A stretch of 20,603 bases of DNA, from positions 1 to 20,603 of the forward strand of contig JALLBK010000197.1 in the NCBI GenBank assembly GCA_036940085.1, in the 5' to 3' direction. Shown in pieces: positions 2,129 through 20,595 of this stretch. Position numbers and translations under genes: made by a program. The notes under the pieces are model-generated. The model was not told the origin of the DNA. It was given only the letters and a program-made list of their open reading frames with translations, and made no database searches. This DNA comes from Discostella pseudostelligera. Lineage: Eukaryota > Bacillariophyta > Thalassiosirophyceae > Thalassiosirales > Thalassiosiraceae. Position 1 is the stretch's first letter, and each line of letters starts with the position of its first letter.

Positions 2129-3703
2129 ATGGTAAAAAGCCGACACATGTCGATGACCAGCAATAGGAATAGAGCGGAACTATCTACTGCGATGAAGCTG
2201 ACGATGAAGACCTTTCCTGCTGTGCTCGGATTCATTTCTAGCCGCGATGCTCGCCTCGACCTCAGGCATCGCTTCATGTCACATAGACATAGGTCTGAAA
2301 TACGATGTACCGATGAAGACGATAATATCTTCGCCTGCCATGGAACTAATGTTAGCAGACGGTCACTGTTGCATTCAGCAGGGACGTCCCTCGCTGGTGT
2401 GGTGTCAGCTGGTCCGCTCGCAAAATTATTTGGAAGTCAATATGTAGATGTCAATACGGTCAGTGCCATGGGCCTTGTCCAATTTCCATGCGAGCCGGGT
2501 TATCTTGCCAACACATATAATATGATGAGGGCGGGGGAAAGTCGTCTGGAGGCAGAAGGCATACTCAGCACCAACCCGCTATTTCTGACAAACCAAGACG
2601 ACTCCTTAAGTGACTTGGGGAAAATTCAGGTAGAAGCATCATGCAATGAAATGCTTGTATTGGGAATCAACCCTAGTGTTGTCAAGTACTCACTAGCGTC
2701 GAAGTGTATTGAAACGGCAAATATTGTTGCCTCGAAGCTCATGGTCGGGAGGAATAGAATTGTTCCTGAATTTACATTCATGGATCAGCGAAGCGTAGGC
2801 CTATGGGACGGTAAATCCCTCAACTCAACTGAAGCTGCTGTTTGGGCAATGGATACCGACGAAGGTGGGGACGAAGGTCGGGGTGGCAAACCTCCTCCGA
2901 ATGAGGATGGGACACCAAACGAGACGCTCTTTGAGCAGGTCACGAGGTTGCGTCAGCTAATGTCAATTCTCGAAACTCAGTACTCTGGTGACGACATACT
3001 ACTCATTTTTCCTGACGGGACTAGCCCCGCTCTTCTCTCGTGTCTTATTTCGGGCATACCATTGAAGGAGGTGCACGCACTCAATTTTTTACCAGGCGAA
3101 TTACGAGCAGGGGTCAATATGAAGAATACTCGTCAGCTTTTGAAAGAAAGAGTTTCATCGCCTGAGTATTTAGCCACACTTGCTAGAGGACGAGACGAAC
3201 TAAAGACCTTACGGAGGGAACTTGATGAATATCTCTTAGCAAAAGAAGGGTCGAAAACGTTATTGATTCCTGGACCGGAGAGCCGTGGAGCTGTTGAATC
3301 GCAAACAAATGGTCGGCGCTCATATGCAAGAAAGACTAGATTTACTCCAGACATACTTGCGACAGGTGCATTACTTGCGATTGGTAGCCTCGCCATGTTG
3401 AGGGTCGACAAAGATGGAGATGAGAACCGCAGAATGTCTGACTTTAAGCCAGTGCCATCCACTGCTGAATTAGATCCTCCACAAACTACCCCGTTCACAA
3501 CCGACACTACTGAAACGGTTGCTATTCAAGTTTCTGACTCCGCCGACGGAATTATAGATCCAAATGTTTTCCAGGACATCCCGGTGTTGTCCAAGGAGGA
3601 CCGTGTCAAAGCAGCTGAGCTTGCGATGGAGGAATACCTTTCTCAAGATGATGGAGGTGACGCATGGTTATCATCGATGCTGGAAATAAGAGACGAGACA
3701 TAG
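2129..3703 (+). CDS. Histidine-phosphatase-fold (phosphoglycerate mutase-like) protein, plastid, catalytic residues lost
   Basis: Uninterrupted frame of 524 codons. ATG at 2192 (residue 22, MKLTMKTFPAVLGFISS) is the better start: it gives a signal-peptide-like N-terminus and clears the E2F-like site, leaving about 503 aa. Residues 76-99 form a twin-arginine signal (SRRSLLHSAG, then a hydrophobic stretch and AGPLA), as in thylakoid-lumen proteins. The fold follows histidine phosphatases: MRAGES at 133-138 where RHGES is expected, LFLTNQDDSLSDLG at 151-164, YSLASKCIETA at 187-197, and ILLIFPDGT at 290-298 where a distal His is expected. The first catalytic His is Ala135, the second Arg is Lys192 and the distal position is Asp296, so catalysis is unlikely. 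From memory, plants and algae have chloroplast relatives with similar RAG/FPDGT changes. A helix at about 406-425 could anchor it in the thylakoid membrane. Confidence 0.8.
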   Translation: MVKSRHMSMTSNRNRAELSTAMKLTMKTFPAVLGFISSRDARLDLRHRFMSHRHRSEIRCTDEDDNIFACHGTNVSRRSLLHSAGTSLAGVVSAGPLAKLFGSQYVDVNTVSAMGLVQFPCEPGYLANTYNMMRAGESRLEAEGILSTNPLFLTNQDDSLSDLGKIQVEASCNEMLVLGINPSVVKYSLASKCIETANIVASKLMVGRNRIVPEFTFMDQRSVGLWDGKSLNSTEAAVWAMDTDEGGDEGRGGKPPPNEDGTPNETLFEQVTRLRQLMSILETQYSGDDILLIFPDGTSPALLSCLISGIPLKEVHALNFLPGELRAGVNMKNTRQLLKERVSSPEYLATLARGRDELKTLRRELDEYLLAKEGSKTLLIPGPESRGAVESQTNGRRSYARKTRFTPDILATGALLAIGSLAMLRVDKDGDENRRMSDFKPVPSTAELDPPQTTPFTTDTTETVAIQVSDSADGIIDPNVFQDIPVLSKEDRVKAAELAMEEYLSQDDGGDAWLSSMLEIRDET

Positions 3704-5888: not shown

Positions 5889-8800
5889 CTATTCATGTTG
5901 GGCTGACGCATACATCGCAAATGCGACTTGGCTTCCAAATCCTGCGGCAAATCTTAAGGCGTACCTGCAGGCATAAGCCCCGCCATTCGAGATTTTGATG
6001 TCGCCTAGGTAATCATCTTTCTCCTTGTAGTTCGGGATCGGTGGCACGACCTGTCGCATAAGCACCTCCACTGCTGCCACATCCTCGAAGGACACGCCCA
6101 TCGGGTGACCAGTGAAACCCTTTGTATTAAGAATCAACAACTTAGACAGGAGACCATCTCCGAACGCGGATCGAAGTGCAGCCACTTCATTTCCCGAACA
6201 ACTTGCTGCAGGCGAAGCATGAGTTGACGTTTCATGTGAAAAATATACTCCATGGGTGGCGATTTCGGCTTTACTGATACCGTGGATGAGTTCAATATCA
6301 TTCAAGAACCGCTTCAATTCGGATGCAATGTGTTTTCTGTCTAATGCGGCGCCATGGAAGGCTGAATTGGAATATTGAGTTGCCAACAAGCGAGCACGGA
6401 TTTGGCATGGTTGACATCCTGGGATTGCAGGAAGTTTCATGCGCTCTTGGCAGCTCGATTCGGTTTCCAACACCATGCCAATTCCTCCAGCACCAAGGAC
6501 CATACCTGAACGCCGTTTGTCGAAAGGACATGCAGCATCCTCAACTGCCTCTTGTATGGTCGCGGCACCTAAAGCTCGGAACCCAGATCCTGGAGTTGAC
6601 AAAAGAAGTATGAGTTCGAACTCATGTAATTGGATAAGTAAATCATACTCTTTTACAATTCTCACCTAGCCATGGTAAAAGAGTTGCCCCCGAACCGTTA
6701 TCTCCAGCGACTACCACCACACGCTCAGCGCGTCCAGATATCAGCATATCCTTAGAGTTGGAGACGAAGGCAATACATATCAGTATCTATCGTTGTGAAT
6801 AACAAGTGACAACAATTGCACCGAATTCTTGAACTTACCTGAGCCATGCCGATGGCCTGAGTGGTACCCGCACAGGCTGCATTCGTCTGTGTGTTGGGAC
6901 CACGACAACCAGCCAGCTGCGCCAATTGAGCATTACCCAACACAAGCACCCGAAACAGGAACTTGCGATCGAATTCGTACGGACCCGATGACGCTGTGGA
7001 TGCTGTCGAGGATGATTCACTGGCATCATCTCCACCGCTGCTATTACTACTCTTACCACCTTCCACTTCTCGCACGCGAGATAATAGTCGAGCAAACGCC
7101 GCCTCGTCATCATCCGCCAATTGTCGATCAGGCGATGCACGAAGCAGACGGTTCCGAAGCGTAAACACAAGACGCTCCGCGGTTTGAGCACCAACCGTCT
7201 TGGATTGTAGGAACCGCATAACTTCGCCAACGGCAGCATCCATGGCGGGGAAACTCGATGCGTAGACAACACCCGTCGTATCGCGGTATTGCTCAGGCAA
7301 CATCCATTCCGTTGGATCGTTGGATTTGCCAGATACTAAACCAGCAGATTTGAGTGCCTCCAAACCTGCTGCCACGGCAACCTGCGCTGCAATATCCATA
7401 GTCTCTGCCAAGCCCTCCGGAACACCGTAGTTGGCATTCAAATCGAGTGGACCAAGCTGAGCAGCCACCTTAATAACATCTTTGTCCGAGGTAATGGGGA
7501 TACGCTCCGTCTTCCCTCCAGGATGCTTCTTCACCTGCACCACATTCTTATCCACCATGGCCATTTTCAACGATCCACTTATAGGACGAATGCATTGCAC
7601 TTTCCCCTCGACCAATCTCTGCAAATTGGAAGCATCAAATACATTCATGTCCCCGTCTCCATGGGGCAACCCCGCCGATGTTCCAGTAATCACACACGCT
7701 ACGCGATGCTTGGCCTCGGAATAGGTATCAATTGCATTCTCGTGAGAATGTGTCAACACATCTAACATTCCAGTGGCGGGGGTGGAGACCGAATCACGCT
7801 GTGCCAAGCGTAGTACAATGGGAGGCGCGAGCATACCAGCCTTGCCCGGTAGTTCTGGTTCCGAATCGAGTGGCACGCGAGAGTACGATCGGACCCATTT
7901 CGAGTCGATACCGTTGAGAAAGTATGTTCCTAAAAGAAATAGAAAGCGAAGTTATGTGAGCCAAATTTCATTCGACGATGCACATTATGAACGCAACGAA
8001 CACAAAATGCACCATATTATGACATACCGGGAAACATCCTCCCCACCGTAGGATAGACCGGAGAATACGGAGCACCACAACGATGCATTCGTGCACGTGT
8101 TTCCAGTGCCAAATCGAGCTCCTGCGGATGGACTTCCTCACGAGTAGCCAGCCGTGCTGAAAAATTAAGTTTCTGTGCCATATCTTCAATGGTGAATATC
8201 CTCTCATTACTGCCACCATTAGCAGTAGAGGAGGCGGAGGTGGGTGTCCGGACGTGAAGACGGTACATGGTTGCCAGGGCACCACTTCCATAACTAAACA
8301 CCACGGCAGTTTTGCCAGGCGTCAAATCTCCTCGACTACCCGCCTTATCGATCATGGAGGCAAGGCCAAGGAAGACACTTGCCGTGTAGGTATTGCCCAC
8401 AATCTTCGAGGCGGCATTGGCATCAGTAAGACGTTGACTGTAGGAAGCTTTGGAGATGGATTTGAGTGCATCTTCAAGATCCTTATCGGAGTAAGTTTCT
8501 TCAATGGGTTTGGTGAGATCTTCGTCGACAAATAGAACACTTTGGGGTGCTGCTTCTGCTGCTGTCGAATGAGTACTACCCTCCTTCTTCTCTTCCGAAT
8601 CTTTACTCATCATTCGTTCCCTGGCATGACGACGACGTGCATCTATGAAATACATGCGACCATAACTCTTTTGCACCAATTTGTTGTACGGTGCATGAAA
8701 GACAAAGTAGTCTGCTGCCTCGGCATGAAAATAATGCTGCTGCTCTTCCTCGTCATCTTCTCCACCACCAGCAACACAATGATTATTCAATCGATCCACC

Positions 8801-9684
8801 TTGTCACAAAACTTGGAATAACAATCTTCCAACGCTCTATAATAACAAAGCTGACTCAATGCTCCATCCACCACCGGATATTCTACCGTATGATCTGGTT
8901 TGAAAAAGTCATAGACATTCGAAGCATGGGTGGCCCGTTCTCGTGGATCGACCATTGCCAAGGGTGCATTCCGCCCGACTAGTACGGCCACAGCGCCGGC
9001 ACCACAGGTAGGACGGGCAGGACCACGTGCATAGGTGGCAATATCTACGGCCACGACAACAGCGTACCGACCATCCCAGGAATCGGATTCTACCCAATTG
9101 AAAGCGTTGAGCAATGCGGAGGTGCCGCCATAACAGGCATTGATTACCGTGGCACCTTCAATATCTGTATTACCGGGGAATAAATCCATGAGTACAGTTT
9201 TGGTAGATTTGGATTTATCCACGAGTGTTTCAGTGCCGACCTCTAATCGCCCGACAGATGAGGGATCAATATTGTACTTCTCGAGAAGGGAGTGTGTCAC
9301 TGTCAATGCCATGGAATTGACATCTTCGGCATCACCAGTAACGGCCATACCGTCTTGGCCAAGACCGAGTGTGTACCGCCCGGCAGAAACGCCGGTATGC
9401 TCCTCGAATGCAGATTGGGAGATGAAAGTTCGGGGTGTGTAGACTTCCATGGCGAGTATGCCAATGTTCTTCCCGTTGCCTGACGGGGTGGTGGCACCCG
9501 ACGACGATGACGTCGAGGACGAGTTGGCGGCGGCATCGGCTGCTAAATTCTCACGACTGAGGGAGGAGGTGCGATGATGATGTTGTAGGACGGCTGTGGA
9601 GGCAATGGCTCCGGCGACGGCGCCGACAGCCATGGCGTGGCTTGTCATTGTTGATGGTAATAATAATTGGTTGGTATGATACAA
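5889..9684 (-). CDS. HMG-CoA synthase / beta-ketoacyl synthase fusion, four exons, 1177 aa
   Basis: Minus-strand exons 9684-8028, 7929-6839, 6750-6666 and 6589-5889; introns of 98, 88 and 76 nt, all GT-AG, total 3534 nt in frame. ATG at 9648 (residue 13) is an alternative start. Residues about 14-33 are hydrophobic (AMAVGAVAGAIASTAVL), a possible signal or anchor. HMG-CoA synthase spans about 72-570: LEVGTET (catalytic Glu152), INACYGGTSA (Cys184), FVFHAPYNKLVQKS (His330), and the C-terminal FPGTYFLNGIDSKWVRSYSR, which is completed only by splicing exon 1 to exon 2. It condenses acetyl-CoA with acetoacetyl-CoA to HMG-CoA in the mevalonate pathway. The frame then runs into a ketosynthase (about 603-1177): ITGTSAGLPHG, TNAACAGTTQ (Cys905), SHETSTHAS (His1063), NTKGFTGHPMG (Lys1101, His1106), RFAAGFGSQ. 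The GHP(M/K)G and HxTST forms recall fungal-FAS-like or bacterial megasynthase ketosynthases. A Ser/Asp-rich insert (about 830-865) precedes the active-site Cys. Domain identities are confident; the fusion depends on the splice at 8027/7930. Confidence 0.88.
7930..8027 (-). other. Intron joining the HMG-CoA synthase and ketosynthase parts
   Basis: Donor G|GTATGT at 8027, acceptor CTTTTAG ending at 7930, 98 nt. Read through, it gives a stop three codons after FPG. Spliced, the split Gly codon (G|GA) leads straight into TYFLNGIDSKWVRSYSR, the expected end of HMG-CoA synthases. This one junction decides that the two enzymes form a single reading frame. Confidence 0.85.
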
Positions 9685-10189
9685 TAATATCTAGTGACCT
9701 CTTGATAGTTCATCGTCGCTTTTGCCCTCTTCACTTGCCGCCACAGTCAAAAAATCAGCCCACCGCGAGACCGACACCGCCCGAGCTTGCCACACCATTG
9801 CTTTTCTCGCACCTCCCACACACATCCCAGAAATGGAACTTGACGGGCAGACGACCTCTTGTAATTTCAGAGAATTCACTAAATTCGCCTGTCCGTCGTA
9901 GTGCTCTTCTTCTGGGGAGGCTCACACACGACACCAAAAATGCCGATGCGACGTCAGCAAGATCGGTTCGCGCCATTTCCTTCTTTCCCGCCAAAACTCG
10001 CCTATCTTCGTCTTCCCGTCAAATTTCGCCACTCCGCTCGTGGTCTGTCTGGCGTCGGTCCATCAGTTTGCGCCCACATACAAAGATCCTTCATTCGACC
10101 AACCAGTGCATGGAGCATGAACCACGAAGATCAGCGGCAGCGGAACACCGTAGTAGCAACACTCAACCCTTCACCTACACCCCATCATC
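9685..10189. promoter_or_regulatory. Bidirectional promoter between the fusion gene and plastid gyrA
   Basis: 505 bases separate two divergent start codons. No conserved protein is seen in any frame. The region carries an E2F-like site (9984-9996) and a CRE-like ctgacgtcg on the minus strand (9949-9957). CRE/bZIP control by CO2 or cAMP is known in diatoms, but one near-match is weak evidence. Confidence 0.5.
9984..9996 (-). promoter_or_regulatory. E2F-like site, ttttggcgggaaa
   Basis: On the minus strand this reads ttttggcgggaaa, a full match to the classical E2F/DP site. It sits about 190 bases from the gyrA ATG and 300 from the fusion-gene ATG, inside their shared promoter. Cell-cycle control is expected for a gyrase; its effect on the other gene is open. 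Confidence 0.5.
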
Positions 10190-13142
10190 ATGAAGGAACA
10201 ACAACAGCAGAGGCGACTTCTTCGTCCATCGCAGCTATCCACTTCAGTGCTGGTCGCTCTCTACTGGATAGTACTAGGAGCTCGGGATCATCATCACAGT
10301 GCTTTCAGTTTCACATTGCCTCAATGGCAAAGGGATGGGCAACATCACATCACAACACTGAAGCGACAACGCATCTCCACCATCCTCTATGCACAGTCCA
10401 CCGATGAGGCTGGCTCCTACGATCCAACATTAACATTCAACTCCGAAGCTCAAATCGCCTTACAAGCCAATGAATTCCTATCTTCGTCCACTACTACCGC
10501 CACATCCACACGAAAAAATGTCATTGACTTGCCCGAAGAAGTCTCCAACTCCTTCATGCAATACTCTCTAAGTATCATCTTAGGTCGGGCCTTACCCGAT
10601 GCAAGAGATGGGATGAAGCCAGTCCACCGACGGATATTGTATGCGATGAATGGTTTGGGATTATCATCGAGTAGTTCATATCGAAAGTGTGCACGAGTTG
10701 TTGGGGAGGTGTTGGGGAAGTAGTAAGTTCTTGTGTGTAGATATTGCTGAGATGCTGGTACATTGTTGATTCAAATTGTTGTGTATTTACCTTAACTTCT
10801 TGATGGTCTTTCTAACCACTCTACATCAATCGACGATGCATTTGGTTCATCTTAGCCATCCACATGGAGACACCGCCGTCTACGATGCTCTTGTCCGTCT
10901 TGCCCAACCATTTTCCACCAACATGCCACTCATTGATGGTCATGGAAACTTTGGATCCATCGATGCTGATCCCGCCGCGGCAATGCGTTACACGGAATGT
11001 CGATTGTCACGAATGGCCGCAGAGTCATTACTGGAAGATATCAATATGGATACAGTCGAATTCTTACCAAACTTTGACGGTAGCGAGTATGAACCAAGTG
11101 TATTGCCCGCAAAGGTGCCCATGTTGTTGCTCAATGGTGGAGCGGGAATTGCCGTGGGTATGGCGACGAATGTACCCCCGCATAACTTGGTAGAGTTAAT
11201 GGATGCATGTGTGGCACTAACGAAAGGTAGAAACGAGGGTGGGAAGGAGGTTACTGATGCCATGTTACTAAGGATTATACCTGGACCAGACTTTCCGACT
11301 GAGGCATGTATCATTGGTACCTCTGGATCAAGAAAATTATACACCACTGGCAATGGAGGTGTAGTTATGCGAGCGGTTATGCATTTGGAGCAAGTAGCTT
11401 CGGGGAAGAAAACGACACGTAATGCAATCATTGTGACGGAACTTCCGTACCAGGTGAACAAAGCTGCTCTATTGGAACGGATTGCCTCATTAGTCAATGA
11501 GAAGAAGTTGGATGGTATAGCCGATCTACGAGATGAAAGTGATCGTGATGGAATACGAATGGTTATTGAATTGAAGAGAGATGCAGTAGCAGCCGTCGTG
11601 CAGAACAACTTATTGAAGAAGACATCGCTGCAAACTACCTTTTCGGGAAACTTCTTGGCCCTATTTGGCAGTGGAACTGTCCCACAGCGATTTACACTGC
11701 GTGAGGCATTGGATTGCTTCCTTGACTTTAGGTTTCAGACGATACGCAACAAATGTGTGTTCCAATTGGATAAGGTCGAGAACCGGGCGCATATTGTAGA
11801 TGGGCTATTGATTGCTCTTCAGTATACAGATGAGGTTATTGAAATAGTTCGGAATGCTCCCGATCAGTCTAGTGCTCGTGAAGCTCTCATGAACGAGGAG
11901 AATCCTCGTTTCTGTTTGTCGAGTGCCCAAGCTGATGCAGTGTTGAAGTTGCAACTTGGTCAATTAACCCGCTTGAATGGAGACAAGCTTGCCGATGAGA
12001 AGAAAACCCTATCTGAAAGCAAGGCGAACCTCAGCAACCTACTCACAAATGATGCCGCAGTGAGAGAGGTCATGGTGGATGAGTTCCAGGCGATGAAGAG
12101 CAAGTATGGAACACCACGCAAAACGAAAATACTTCCTGATGAAGATGAGAAAGCTGAAATCGAGTTGATTCAAAACGAACGTTCTGTTATTGTAGTAACG
12201 AGGGGAGGTTACATCAAACGAATGCCGTTGACGACATTTGAAAGCCAGAACCGAGGTACTCGCGGCAAGAAAGGCACGTCGAACGCTAACGCTGATGACA
12301 ATGAAATCGCCCATTGCTTCACCTGTAATGACCATGACACTGTGCTAATGACTACGCAGACCGGTATTGCGTATGGACTGAGAGCCTATCAGGTTCCAGA
12401 GGGAGGACGGATGGCAAAGGGTACTCCCATCCCGTCAGTCTTGCCTGTCAAAGCTGATGATGTTATCACCTCAGTTCTTCCTGTGTCGCAATTCTCGAAG
12501 GATGAATACATCGTTCTGGCGACAGAGTTTGGATGGATTAAGAAGACTCCACTAGCTGTATTTGAGAAACTCACTTCTCGCGGACTCATTATTGCCACCC
12601 TTGCTGATGGCGATCGGTTGAACTGGTGTGAAAAATGCACTGACGAGGACGATATTTTGGTATGTTCCACTCGAGGGCAAGCAACTCGATTTGCTGCAAG
12701 CAGCATGCGGCCTACGGCGAGAACGAGTCGCGGCGTGAAATCAATGACGCTGAAAAAGGGCGACACAATTGCTGATATGAACATATTGAAGGGAAAGGGT
12801 GACGAGTCACTGTTGATAGTGACCAAAGAGGGCTATGGCAAACGAGTTCGGAACGACGAGTTCCGGACAACTGCTCGAGGTGGAGTGGGCGTTCTTGCCA
12901 TCAAATTCAAATCTGGTAGAGTCAATGATAGAGTGAGCACAGTGCGCGTAGTAAAGGAAGATGACGAGGTTTTGATAATAACGTCGCAAGGTGTTATTGT
13001 AAGGCAAGCGGTGAAAGACATTCCATGTCAGGGGCGTGCTGCAACTGGTGTGCTAGTTCAGAAAGTTGACACTGGCGATAGCATCAGTACAGTCAGTATC
13101 GTTCCCGAGGAAGATGTAGCTGATATCTCTGGTGACTCATGA
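10190..13142 (+). CDS. gyrA: DNA gyrase subunit A, plastid-targeted, two exons, 939 aa
   Basis: Exons 10190-10722 and 10856-13142, with a GT-AG intron of 133 nt; splicing restores [13 protein letters not shown] across the junction. Residues 15-31 form a signal-peptide core followed by HHHSAFSF, with cleavage expected at Ala38/Phe39 as in diatom plastid presequences. The breakage-reunion domain starts near 112. The catalytic tyrosine is Tyr223 in MRYTECRLS. The quinolone-region residues equivalent to E. coli Ser83 and Asp87 are Thr184 and Asp188. The C-terminal beta-pinwheel (about 620-930) has a GyrA-box-like [10 protein letters not shown] at 642-651 and further blades, seen at GWIKK, GQATRF, GYGKRVR and GVIVRQ. 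Full length for the family plus a presequence. It pairs with GyrB to supercoil plastid DNA; dual targeting to mitochondria cannot be excluded. Divergent from the fusion gene and convergent with the next one. Confidence 0.95.
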
Positions 13143-13346: not shown

Positions 13347-15206
13347 TTACTTTCGCTCTGCTCTTTCCAACGCTAGCCGCATTGCATTCTTGCATCCATC
13401 ATACAACCCAATTTTGTTATTGTCATTGATTGATTTATTCATCACTTCCAACAAGTTCGTAGTCAAGAAAAGATTGACATACTTCACTGCCAACGGGACT
13501 TCACGAACCTCCAATGTGCCATCGCCAAGTTCTGAAGCACGCAAGGCCGAGTATGCCTCGTGGTCGCCGACGCGACGAATCATGAGTTTGGGAATGGGGT
13601 AAAACGCCAACTCACTTGGTTTGCATGCCAACACATCGGCAACATTGCAGAGAATGTCAGTGGTGGCCACAGCTGTGAAGTAATCCTCGTAGGTGAACTG
13701 CAGGGACGATACCATGTGAACGGATCAGTACAATTTCGGGCTTCAAATGGGCAACATTTGATTGATTGAAAAAGAGACTCACCAACGTCACATTCTTTGA
13801 AGGCTCTTGTTTCATCATTTTCTCTTTGAATTCCTGAACGCCCTTCATATCCACAACTTTATCATACTCCATCCCATTCGATTCCAATGCACCCACAAAT
13901 GCTTCCTTCATATGTTCATGATCGCCAGCATTCAAAAACAGCTGCACCTTCCCTTCCTTGACCAATCCAGAAAGAGCACCGACCATACTAACAATGAACT
14001 TTCTCTGCGCTCCCGCCCCTCCCACAGGCACAATGATACGCAATGGCTTCCCCGCCTTTCTACGCGCCACTCTACGAGAGCATGCATCAGGAATACCCTC
14101 GACCAAATCACGTGGAATCCAATGTCCAGCCAATGCCAAGTCTTTCTCCGGCACGCCCATCTTTAGGAAGGAGTGGTAGTTCGATGGACCTTGGACTAAA
14201 TTGAGTGCTCCTGGAACGACCACGAACCATTGAGCATGATTATCAATGACAAGATTAATTACGTTGGTGAATCCGGCCTCCACGGCAGCACATGCCACCA
14301 TGGAGTGTGTCGCGATGATGGGAGAGTTTTTATCAAGCCCATTGATCAGGGGGAGCATGTGTTGAGCAAATTGGTAAGTGACACGAAGGGAGTCTTCATC
14401 GCCGGATTTGGTAAGTTTGCCCCAGAATTTTTCAGCCATTCCACCGAGCTAGTCAACAACAATAGTTGATTGAATATATGAATGCATATCATGCATCATT
14501 GTCGGAGTTAGTGAGAAGGAATATTAGCCTGATTTAGGTATCGGAAAAACAGGAATATGCTTAGTGCATTAATTACCTCAGATGCCAACCTCGATCCTTT
14601 GGAATAAAGAGCATCAGCATCTTTGATCATCTGAGCCTCCTCCGACTCAATGTTAAGAAAATCATGAAACCTAGCAATAATATACACAATTCAATGATGT
14701 GATGGGCATAATCAATGAAAATAGAGCATGAGCAAGGTGAATGTAGCGTACCATGTTTCCCTATCATTTCTACTGCCACGACCAACACCCCACGAAGTAG
14801 CGGCATAAGCAATACGATGATGTCCAAATCCCATCCGAATAGTGCCCACAATGACGGGAGGTTTCTTGTTGTTGTTATTATTGACTTTTCCAGATTCTTC
14901 TCCCTCGTTCCTCGATGTGACTTTCAGTCCAGGAACTTTATCACTATCTTGCGTCTTTAACGGATATCCCTCCTTCTTCGCCACGCGATTCCTCACATTG
15001 AGCCAGTTCAATAGCCAAGATTTGAATGCCGACGCCGGCTCGGGGGGGCCACCCACGAAGTCATCTACACTCACGGCGTTGCTCTCGACCATGGAGCGAT
15101 ACCATCGAGGTGACAAGAGGAGGATGATTCGCCATAGGAAGTACAGGGCAATGAAAGAGGCGGCCAAGGCGATCAGGGCAATCGCCCAGGGTTGCAGAGA
15201 TGCCAT
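13347..15206 (-). CDS. Membrane-anchored GT-B/MGDG-synthase-like putative glycosyltransferase, four exons, 521 aa
   Basis: Minus-strand exons 15206-14752, 14670-14577, 14448-13783 and 13697-13347; introns of 81, 128 and 85 nt, all GT-AG, frames agree. Residues 7-31 form one strong N-terminal helix, so the protein is probably a signal-anchored membrane protein. The first soluble motif is GTIRMGFGHHRIAYAATSWG (121-140), shaped like the Gly-rich loop of MurG/MGDG-synthase-type enzymes. Then come THSMVACAAVEAG (about 231-243), VIDNHAQWFVVVPGA (about 250-264), GHWIPRDL (291-298) and VPVGGAGAQRKF (323-334), at the spacing of a two-lobed GT-B protein. An Asn/Lys run (109-115) lies before the first motif. 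I recall bacterial proteins of unknown function (DUF6938-like) with a similar RMGFGHxRI motif, but cannot confirm the match. Donor and acceptor are unknown; a glycolipid role is inference. Confidence 0.8.
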
Positions 15207-19272: not shown

Positions 19273-20595
19273 TCATTTTTGAAGAAGGAAGCTTGCCGTC
19301 AGACGTGATGCCTCCTTTTGCTGCAACTCCAGTGAAATATGTCGCGGCCCATTCACCGACATCGTGCCACTCTTGTTACTTGCATCATCGTAGGAGGCAA
19401 AACCTGAATGATTCCCTCCATTTATCTTGATGAGTCTAGTCCGTTTTGGAAGTTTAGATAAGAGTTGTTGCTTTTGTTGCGGTGATGAAATGCTCGCGAT
19501 AGAATCATTGGACGCCGTCAGAATTAATACTCGGAGTAACGTTGCATCACGAAGATCGGGAAAACTCTGCGCATTAGTACCTGCCGCCCAAGCAACGATT
19601 TTTGCTCCTAATCTCGATATTGATCCATCCTTCAGTGAGACCGAATTCACCTGCCCATTGCTCGCTTGCAATACTTCTGCAAGTTGTAATGCATTGTATC
19701 CGCCCATGCTGTGACCACCGAGTGCCCATTCAATTACGACTTTTTCATCCAAGTGCAATCGTTTGTAGTGCATCACCAACTCTTCTCCCGCTAACCAAAT
19801 CAAACGTCTGACATCATCCATACCCCCACCAAGTTTTTTGTGGGCGAGACGAAGCGGCTCAAGAGAGGCAACTGCAACTGGAATGCCATAATCTGAAATT
19901 CGTGATGCTACATCTGCATAGGAACTATGATGCACTCCGAACCCAGGAAAGAAGAGAAGCGACGGGATGAAATCTCTTCTCGTATCACCTGCATCATTGG
20001 GTGGAAAATACAAGTCGAATGCCTGCCTGCGTACTGCTCTTCCCATTCGAACTCTTTCACCGAGAGCTTCTTTTGTGCTGTCATCTGGGCTCTTGCGACT
20101 GAGTAGAACAGCTCGAAGACGAGACAAGGTCTGGATCAGTATTGGAGCAAAGTAGTGTAGTAGTAAATCAATCGCAGTGGGAGAGATTACGGATAGTATC
20201 ATACATCGCATGAAATAACTCGGATCAAAGTCCAACATGAAAGAAAGTTGTTGAGCATCTGAGGGCGGAGATGAAAGCGCCAATGAATGATAGGTGTACG
20301 GAGAGAATGCACCTATAAGCGGAGGAAGTCCACTAACAGGGATCATTTTATCCACAGTTTGAGATGTCGGCAGCAGTGAACCAACGAGGCTTAACAGAAG
20401 CGCAGGGAGTAACATATCCACACCAACTTTGATGCCCCTGTCCAACAATTCCAGGTTCGCATTCCATGTCGATGCATCGTAGAAACGAAAACACTCCACT
20501 ACATTCCTCAAGCTCCTCAGAGGCCTGAACAGGAGAGGAGGCCAGGATCGTGTACTTGATAATATGCTCGAATAGATCGGGGTAGGGGACATCAC
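19273..20595 (-). CDS. Alpha/beta hydrolase with N-terminal membrane segments, possibly 5' partial
   Basis: Open minus-strand frame of about 440 codons. The listed first codon is GTG; the first ATG is at 20592, and the frame stays open to the window's right edge, so the N-terminus may lie outside. Numbered from the GTG: hydrophobic segments at about 57-76 (GVDMLLPALLLSLVGSLLP) and 129-156, then the hydrolase fold from about 190. FFPGFGVHHSS (215-225) looks like the oxyanion-hole loop, GGHSMGGYNA (293-302) is the nucleophile elbow with Ser296, SNDSIAS (362-368) offers Asp364 and GGNHSGF (393-399) offers His396, so a complete Ser-Asp-His triad. Substrate is unknown; a lipid ester or pigment ester is possible given the membrane segments. 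Convergent with the coiled-coil gene. Confidence 0.8.
   Translation of the reverse strand: MMSPTPIYSSILSSTRSWPPLLFRPLRSLRNVVECFRFYDASTWNANLELLDRGIKVGVDMLLPALLLSLVGSLLPTSQTVDKMIPVSGLPPLIGAFSPYTYHSLALSSPPSDAQQLSFMLDFDPSYFMRCMILSVISPTAIDLLLHYFAPILIQTLSRLRAVLLSRKSPDDSTKEALGERVRMGRAVRRQAFDLYFPPNDAGDTRRDFIPSLLFFPGFGVHHSSYADVASRISDYGIPVAVASLEPLRLAHKKLGGGMDDVRRLIWLAGEELVMHYKRLHLDEKVVIEWALGGHSMGGYNALQLAEVLQASNGQVNSVSLKDGSISRLGAKIVAWAAGTNAQSFPDLRDATLLRVLILTASNDSIASISSPQQKQQLLSKLPKRTRLIKINGGNHSGFASYDDASNKSGTMSVNGPRHISLELQQKEASRLTASFLLQK

What the first reader, a model, noticed from the sequence alone, without database searches (positions are those of the whole stretch)
5889..9684. HMG-CoA synthase fused in frame to a complete ketosynthase
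Both halves keep all catalytic residues (Glu152, Cys184, His330; Cys905, His1063, His1106). The junction is strong: the conserved end of HMG-CoA synthase is completed only by splicing into the exon that carries the ketosynthase. HMG-CoA synthases I know are stand-alone, about 450-520 aa; I do not recall this fusion being described. The two families share the thiolase fold but are different subfamilies, so this is not a simple tandem duplication.
Basis: partly seen in the sequence, partly recalled or inferred. Interest (0 to 1): 0.88.

Follow-up and report, generated by a model that had tools for sequence, protein, structure and literature searches.

The report
Mevalonate enzyme fused to ketosynthase
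A diatom's HMG-CoA synthase, an early enzyme of sterol and isoprenoid synthesis, is fused to an intact fatty-acid-type condensing enzyme of bacterial kind; the same fusion occurs in other diatoms, brown algae and oomycetes, and what the added half does is untested.

Summary
A four-exon minus-strand gene (9648-5889) encodes 1165 aa: a complete eukaryotic HMG-CoA synthase (HMGS) plus a complete KAS-II-fold ketosynthase (KS) with Cys-His-Lys-His intact. It is not a model artefact: the fusion recurs in other diatoms (transcript-derived proteins among them), brown algae, Phaeothamnion and many oomycetes. In this assembly it is the only HMGS found, and no second copy of its KS type was found. The KS half is as conserved as the HMGS half. 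It is not FabF: it groups with the second ketosynthase (KS') of bacterial KS-AT-ACP-KS'-ACP-KR-DH megasynthases encoded beside acyl-CoA-carboxylase-type genes. Its existence is not new: a 2009 oomycete paper lists it in one table row (P. sojae, T. pseudonana, P. tricornutum). My searches found no paper on its function. Best mechanism, unproven: the KS makes an acetoacetyl thioester from acetyl and malonyl groups for the tethered HMGS, a malonyl-driven entry into the mevalonate pathway. A conserved Phe that should shorten the acyl pocket fits; an acetyl-CoA-acetyltransferase-like thiolase in the same genome and the lack of an ACP count against.

The parts
5889..9648 (-). whole gene, ATG to stop, four exons, 1165 aa HMGS-KS fusion protein
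   Evidence: full-length homologues from 82% (P0001) to 46% (P0116) identity
8028..9648 (-). exon 1: N-terminal extension (aa 1-59, hydrophobic stretch near the start) and HMGS up to codon 541
7930..8027 (-). intron 1 (98 nt, GT-AG, length not a multiple of 3), splits codon 541 inside the conserved end of HMGS
6839..7929 (-). exon 2: last 18 aa of HMGS, linker, first part of KS with the nucleophile Cys893
6751..6838 (-). intron 2 (88 nt)
6666..6750 (-). exon 3 (KS)
6590..6665 (-). intron 3 (76 nt)
5889..6589 (-). exon 4: KS C-terminal part with His1051, Lys1089, His1094 and stop
7877..9471 (-). HMGS domain, aa 60-558 (interrupted by intron 1); Glu140 9229-9231, Cys172 9133-9135, His318 8695-8697
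   Evidence: TIGR01833 491 bits against a cut-off of 286; coordinates
7703..7876 (-). linker, aa 559-616; 21-198 residues long in 127 homologues (median 56)
5907..7702 (-). KS domain, aa 617-1160 (interrupted by introns 2 and 3); Phe767 7250-7252, Cys893 6872-6874, His1051 6234-6236, Lys1089 6120-6122, His1094 6105-6107

Best explanation
SHOWN by sequence: a bifunctional stramenopile protein in which the only HMG-CoA synthase found in this genome is fused to an intact ketosynthase of the KS' family of bacterial megasynthases; its presence in oomycetes and ochrophytes is most simply explained by one fusion before they split. INFERRED: the HMGS half does the normal mevalonate-pathway step. The KS half is a working decarboxylating condensing enzyme with a short acyl pocket; it loads acetyl on Cys893, condenses it with a malonyl thioester (CoA, or an ACP in trans) to acetoacetyl, and this is used by the tethered HMGS to make HMG-CoA. 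This would add a malonyl-driven, irreversible entry beside the reversible thiolase. Confidence: fusion and both intact active sites about 0.97; KS catalytically active about 0.8; acetoacetyl supply to HMGS about 0.4.
For: Fusion in diatoms, brown algae, Phaeothamnion and oomycetes. Catalytic residues in 236 retrieved relatives, counted over rows with a letter there: KS Cys 235 of 235, His 233 of 233, Lys 226 of 230, second His 226 of 227; HMGS Glu 130 of 132, Cys 134 of 136, His 133 of 134; most of the rows with a departure are cut short or split, several at what looks like an exon end. KS half at least as conserved as HMGS: median identity to the window 64.7 against 59.6% in 127 rows, KS higher in 104. 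One PF01154 match in the genome, one HMGR, and beyond this gene only weak matches of its KS. Tree of 26 rows: fusion KS one group (99/100), within a KS' cluster cut off from FabF and KS1 (100/100). Bacterial KS' sits in KS-AT-ACP-KS'-ACP-KR-DH megasynthases with carboxylase-type genes next door. Phe767 aligns with E. coli FabF Ile108: Phe in 230 and Tyr in 3 of 233 relatives, Phe in 9 of 9 distinct bacterial KS' loci read; I108F in B. subtilis FabF puts a residue in the acyl pocket (PMC3996569, one passage). NphT7 makes acetoacetyl-CoA from malonyl-CoA and lies in a Streptomyces mevalonate gene cluster; the reaction is more favourable than thiolase's (PMC5432608 passages).
Against: The same genome has a thiolase whose first exon (167 aa searched) is most like acetyl-CoA acetyltransferases (G000:C59, best PDB match 6aqp), and two oomycetes are listed with acetyl-CoA C-acetyltransferase (PMC5289490 passages), so the KS is not needed to replace thiolase. 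The KS' relatives lie in ACP-carrying proteins; the fusion has no ACP domain, and use of CoA substrates is unproven. Of 10 bacterial genomes with KS' that I checked, 9 have no HMGS match and one has it on another contig, so KS' is not tied to HMGS in bacteria. Linker length varies from 21 to 198 residues, against a fixed channel. The single-chain model has pTM 0.56, so domain packing is not known. In yeast, a pathway relying only on the NphT7 malonyl bypass was detrimental, and two KAS III enzymes tested did not help (PMC5432608 passages). No activity of the fusion has been measured in anything that I saw.
Confidence: 0.42

Rival explanations
1. The KS half is active but serves another path: it starts or extends a fatty-acid or polyketide chain with an ACP in trans, and the fusion only co-expresses or co-localises it with HMGS.
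For: Its relatives are lipid or polyketide megasynthase domains with ACP in cis; linker length is unconstrained; an acetyl-CoA-acetyltransferase-like thiolase already exists.
Against: No ACP, AT or KR in cis. The order HMGS-KS recurs in diatoms, brown algae and oomycetes with both active sites kept, which favours a shared substrate or product (inference).
Confidence: 0.33
2. The KS half is a regulator or dimerisation partner (for example a sensor of malonyl or acyl thioesters) and its chemistry is not needed.
For: HMGS is complete by itself. Gain of inert thiolase-fold partners is known (chain length factors; recalled).
Against: Cys, His, Lys and His are kept in nearly every row that reaches them, diatoms and oomycetes alike; an inert partner would be expected to lose them somewhere.
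Confidence: 0.14
3. The HMGS half works in beta-branching of a polyketide, like the PksG/CurD cassettes, with the KS as partner.
For: Such cassettes pair an HMGS-like enzyme with a KS (recalled); CurD and PksG appear in the PDB lists.
Against: The HMGS half is the eukaryotic type (TIGR01833 above cut-off; in the PDB search Brassica HMGS 374 bits, CurD and PksG 50-59 bits) and the only HMGS found, beside an HMGR. The KS keeps its Cys, whereas the cassette's decarboxylase KS has lost it (recalled).
Confidence: 0.05
4. Artefact: two neighbouring genes wrongly joined by a predicted intron.
For: No transcript of this species was available.
Against: GT-AG intron completing the conserved HMGS end; 11 fused proteins with MMETSP transcriptome labels; named oomycete fused proteins of about 950-1050 aa.
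Confidence: 0.02

Closest known systems
HMGS-KS protein listed by Morris et al. 2009 (P. sojae Ps128154, T. pseudonana Tp260768, P. tricornutum 16649; PMC2705460)
   Same: same two activities in one protein, in an oomycete and two diatoms; this window is very probably an orthologue
   Different: only a table row in the passages seen; KS family, conservation, pocket and function are not treated in those passages
Eukaryotic HMG-CoA synthase (TIGR01833; Brassica HMGS1, human HMGCS1)
   Different: stand-alone proteins of about 450-520 aa (recalled); no KS
KS' (second ketosynthase) of bacterial KS-AT-ACP-KS'-ACP-KR-DH megasynthases
   Same: 43% identity over the aligned KS with L015 and with Nonomuraea; Phe at the FabF Ile108 position; SHET, NTKGF and AAGFGSQ motifs shared with both, FDRKFL with L015
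   Different: embedded in a megasynthase with ACP in cis; the window protein has a longer insert before the active Cys and no ACP
Archaeal acetoacetyl-CoA thiolase/HMGS/DUF35 complex
   Same: a thiolase-fold partner that supplies acetoacetyl to HMGS
   Different: separate chains, a thiolase, DUF35 scaffold and shared CoA site (described in PMC12329534 passages); here one chain, a KS, no DUF35 match
NphT7 acetoacetyl-CoA synthase
   Same: proposed chemistry: acetyl + malonyl to acetoacetyl for mevalonate
   Different: KAS III type with Cys-His-Asn (PMC5432608 passages), stand-alone; here KAS II fold with Cys-His-Lys-His
PKS beta-branching cassette (PksG, CurD)
   Same: HMGS-type enzyme beside a KS
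   Different: bacterial ACP-dependent HMGS; KS there lacks the active Cys (recalled)

Membership tests
Eukaryotic HMG-CoA synthase | passes the family model over its whole length | tested here: met
   TIGR01833 491.1 bits, cut-off 286.2, model positions 3-456 of 457
Eukaryotic HMG-CoA synthase | Glu-Cys-His catalytic triad | tested here: met
   Glu140, Cys172, His318; which residues are catalytic is recalled
Eukaryotic HMG-CoA synthase | HMG-CoA-forming activity | not testable with these tools
   no assay; only HMGS match in the assembly
KAS I/II ketosynthase superfamily | complete KAS II fold | tested here: met
KAS I/II ketosynthase superfamily | Cys-His-His with active-site Lys | tested here: met
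   Cys893, His1051, Lys1089, His1094
FabF (KAS II equivalog) | passes the FabF family cut-off | tested here: not met
   TIGR03150 94.1 bits, cut-off 493.75; outside FabF in the tree
KS' of bacterial megasynthases | groups with KS' apart from FabF and KS1 | tested here: met
   100/100 branch with 4 KS' rows (the branch is long and the program warns of long branches); 43% identity
KS' of bacterial megasynthases | lies in a megasynthase with ACP, KR and DH in cis | tested here: not met
   no such domain in the fusion
PKS beta-branching cassette | KS partner without nucleophile Cys (recalled) | tested here: not met
   Cys in 235 of 235 rows with a letter there
NphT7-type acetoacetyl-CoA synthase | KAS III family with Cys-His-Asn | tested here: not met
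   KAS II fold, Cys-His-Lys-His; the ACP_syn_III hit covers only 890-925
NphT7-type acetoacetyl-CoA synthase | makes acetoacetyl-CoA from malonyl-CoA and acetyl-CoA | not testable with these tools
   needs an assay
Archaeal thiolase/HMGS/DUF35 complex | thiolase and DUF35 partner | tested here: not met
   fusion partner is a KS; no DUF35 match in the protein; the rest of the genome was not searched for DUF35

The most novel reading that the evidence does not exclude
Stramenopiles can run the start of the mevalonate pathway from malonyl thioesters: the HMGS-KS fusion makes acetoacetyl by decarboxylative condensation with a KS captured from a bacterial lipid megasynthase, and converts it to HMG-CoA on the same protein, so that acetyl-CoA carboxylase drives sterol synthesis. 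The same KS' would be the chain-initiating ketosynthase of the bacterial megasynthases.
Probability: 0.3. Interest if true: 0.78.

Novelty: new variant of a known kind. Interest (0 to 1): 0.52.

Why it matters
In the diatom papers of which I saw passages the gene is named simply HMGS, while the protein carries a second conserved active site. If the KS half feeds HMGS, fatty-acid and sterol synthesis in diatoms, brown algae and oomycetes share malonyl units, which changes flux models and engineering plans. The question is directly testable with one purified protein.

Tried and rejected
Gene-model artefact: rejected. KS as a replacement for a missing thiolase: rejected in that strong form, because an acetyl-CoA-acetyltransferase-like thiolase is present. 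Non-fused second copy of HMGS or of this KS in the assembly: none found; the assembly is 963 contigs of unknown completeness. Bacterial HMGS-KS' linkage: not found in 10 genomes. Beta-branching: rejected. Truncated KS in some relatives: the 16 of 135 rows without all seven catalytic residues all have a gap at one or more of them; several stop or change at what looks like an exon end. The first KS tree used a wrong reading frame for the Nonomuraea row and is replaced. That tree holds 4 of the 9 distinct bacterial KS' loci at hand, because my pattern missed L022-L026; one own-genome row (L012) dropped out; the program flags long branches between the FabF/KS1 rows and the rest. The genome-contig scan confirmed 2 of 220 matching stretches, one of them (L016) a FabF-like gene with 30% identity. 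The N. oceanica paper (PMC10989085 passages) says four mevalonate genes from HMGR on are lacking; whether its HMGS is fused could not be tested. Phages: no KS' match. Literature searches for the fusion; only led to the fusion itself.

Full report

2. It is not an artefact. A full-length search gave 282 proteins at E <= 0.001; of the 120 listed, 86 have HMGS-N, HMGS-C and ketoacyl-synthase Pfam domains together, and 11 of those 86 carry MMETSP (transcriptome) labels. A second search from a distant member (P0114) listed 120 of 196; all but one (P0203) carry the three domains, and the named ones include Phytophthora, Pythium, Globisporangium, Lagenidium, Saprolegnia, Aphanomyces, Peronospora, Hyaloperonospora and Plasmopara, the brown algae Scytosiphon and Ascophyllum, and Phaeothamnion.

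3. Both halves are under constraint. Aligning all 236 retrieved relatives, the KS Cys is present in 235 of 235 rows with a letter there, the two His in 233 of 233 and 226 of 227, the Lys in 226 of 230; HMGS Glu, Cys and His in 130 of 132, 134 of 136 and 133 of 134. Of 135 rows with letters at both Cys columns, 119 have all seven residues; the other 16 all have a gap at one or more of them, several ending at what looks like an exon end. In 127 rows covering both halves the KS is closer to the window than the HMGS in 104 (medians 64.7 and 59.6%), while the linker varies from 21 to 198 residues. In the own assembly (23.0 Mb, 963 contigs) there is one HMGS-N match, this gene, one HMGR, and, beyond this gene's exons, only two weak matches to its KS (E 1e-12 and 9e-6), on contigs that hold ordinary ketosynthase matches. 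So as far as the assembly shows, this fused protein is the HMGS of the mevalonate pathway.

4. Where the KS comes from. A scan of bacterial and archaeal genomes with a KS alignment found a proteobacterial MAG (L015, 43% identity); a second relative lies in Nonomuraea (48% to the L015 KS; 43% to the window). In an even draw of 282 genomes from L015's phylum, 63 have a match to the L015 KS at E <= 1e-40, in reading frames of 1121 to 4141 aa. Four bacterial proteins read in full or part (L015, L017, L027, L028) show the general order KS1-AT-ACP-KS'-ACP-KR-DH: L015 begins at KS', and Pfam did not place every ACP in every protein. A phosphopantetheinyl transferase domain is found in L015, L027 and L028, not in the Nonomuraea frame. 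Genes with carboxyltransferase or biotin carboxylase domains lie next door in L017, L027 and L028 by Pfam; in L015 I judged them by reading the translations only. In a tree of 26 rows the stramenopile KS is one group (99/100), inside a cluster with four KS' rows that is cut off from FabF and KS1 (100/100, a long branch), and oomycetes form a group (99/97) beside the ochrophytes (91/88). This fits one capture of a bacterial KS' and one fusion before the oomycete-ochrophyte split; the order among bacterial KS' rows is unresolved. Of 10 bacterial genomes with KS' checked for HMGS-N, one has a match, on another contig.

5. How it may work. Aligned with E. coli FabF, Phe767 falls on Ile108 (109 counting Met). 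It is Phe in 230 and Tyr in 3 of the 233 relatives with a letter there, and Phe in 9 of 9 distinct bacterial KS' loci read; the KS1 and FabF rows have Ile, Leu or Met. In B. subtilis FabF the I108F change puts a residue into the acyl pocket (PMC3996569, one passage); that it favours short chains, and that it is the same site as in E. coli, is recalled. A short-pocket, active KS would suit the first condensation, acetyl plus malonyl to acetoacetyl, which is the substrate of HMGS. NphT7 does this reaction with CoA substrates and relieves the unfavourable thiolase step (PMC5432608 passages). The archaeal thiolase/HMGS/DUF35 complex is a precedent for handing acetoacetyl over within one assembly (PMC12329534 passages). 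So the best-supported guess is a tethered malonyl-driven acetoacetyl supply. Steps shown: fusion, intact active sites, KS' kinship, pocket residue by alignment. Steps inferred: KS activity, substrate, transfer to HMGS.

6. What speaks against it. A thiolase whose first exon is closest to acetyl-CoA acetyltransferases is present, as such enzymes are in the lists for two oomycetes (PMC5289490 passages). No ACP is in the protein. The linker is loose, and domain packing is not resolved. In yeast, relying only on the NphT7 bypass was detrimental (PMC5432608 passages). A KS serving a separate ACP-dependent path remains almost as likely.

7. What is known. The fusion is in print as one row of Table 2 in Morris et al. 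2009 (PMC2705460; passages seen). PMC6330534 calls P. tricornutum J16649 HMG-CoA synthase, and the passages seen mention no ketosynthase; PMC12168105 has the abbreviation HMGS and no occurrence of 'ketoacyl' (passages). A Plasmopara protein is named in its source 'putative hydroxymethylglutaryl-CoA synthase, beta-ketoacyl synthase, thiolase', so annotators have seen both domains. My literature searches found nothing on the role of the KS half; the library lacks most subscription journals. I therefore rate it a variant of a known kind: its existence is listed, its KS class and function are open.

Noticed in passing
window 10190-13142, + strand: DNA gyrase A gene (PF00521, PF03989 on the main exon) lies head to head with the HMGS-KS gene, about 540 bases between the two ATGs.
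   Followed up: partly
window 9645-9713, - strand: A 22-codon upstream reading frame ends in a TGA that overlaps the main ATG (ATGA); whether it is in the transcript is unknown.
   Followed up: partly
protein P0052 (1521 aa): Relative with an extra, apparently partial HMGS copy in front of a full HMGS-KS, perhaps a tandem duplication read through.
   Followed up: no
window protein aa 1-25: Short hydrophobic N-terminal stretch shared by several diatoms and absent from others, which start almost at the HMGS domain; possible membrane anchor or targeting signal.
   Followed up: no
window 13660-14439, - strand: Gene piece matching DUF6938 and DUF6937 (domains of unknown function).
   Followed up: no
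window 2129-3703 (+) and 19276-20595 (-): A weak histidine-phosphatase match and an alpha/beta hydrolase match.
   Followed up: no
L017, L027, L028: Bacterial megasynthases carry two different ketosynthases; the second (KS') shows Phe at the FabF Ile108 site in the loci read and may be the chain-initiating one.
   Followed up: partly
PMC6330534 (passages): The same gene id, Phatr3_J16649, is given for both HMGR and HMGS; one is evidently a slip.
   Followed up: no
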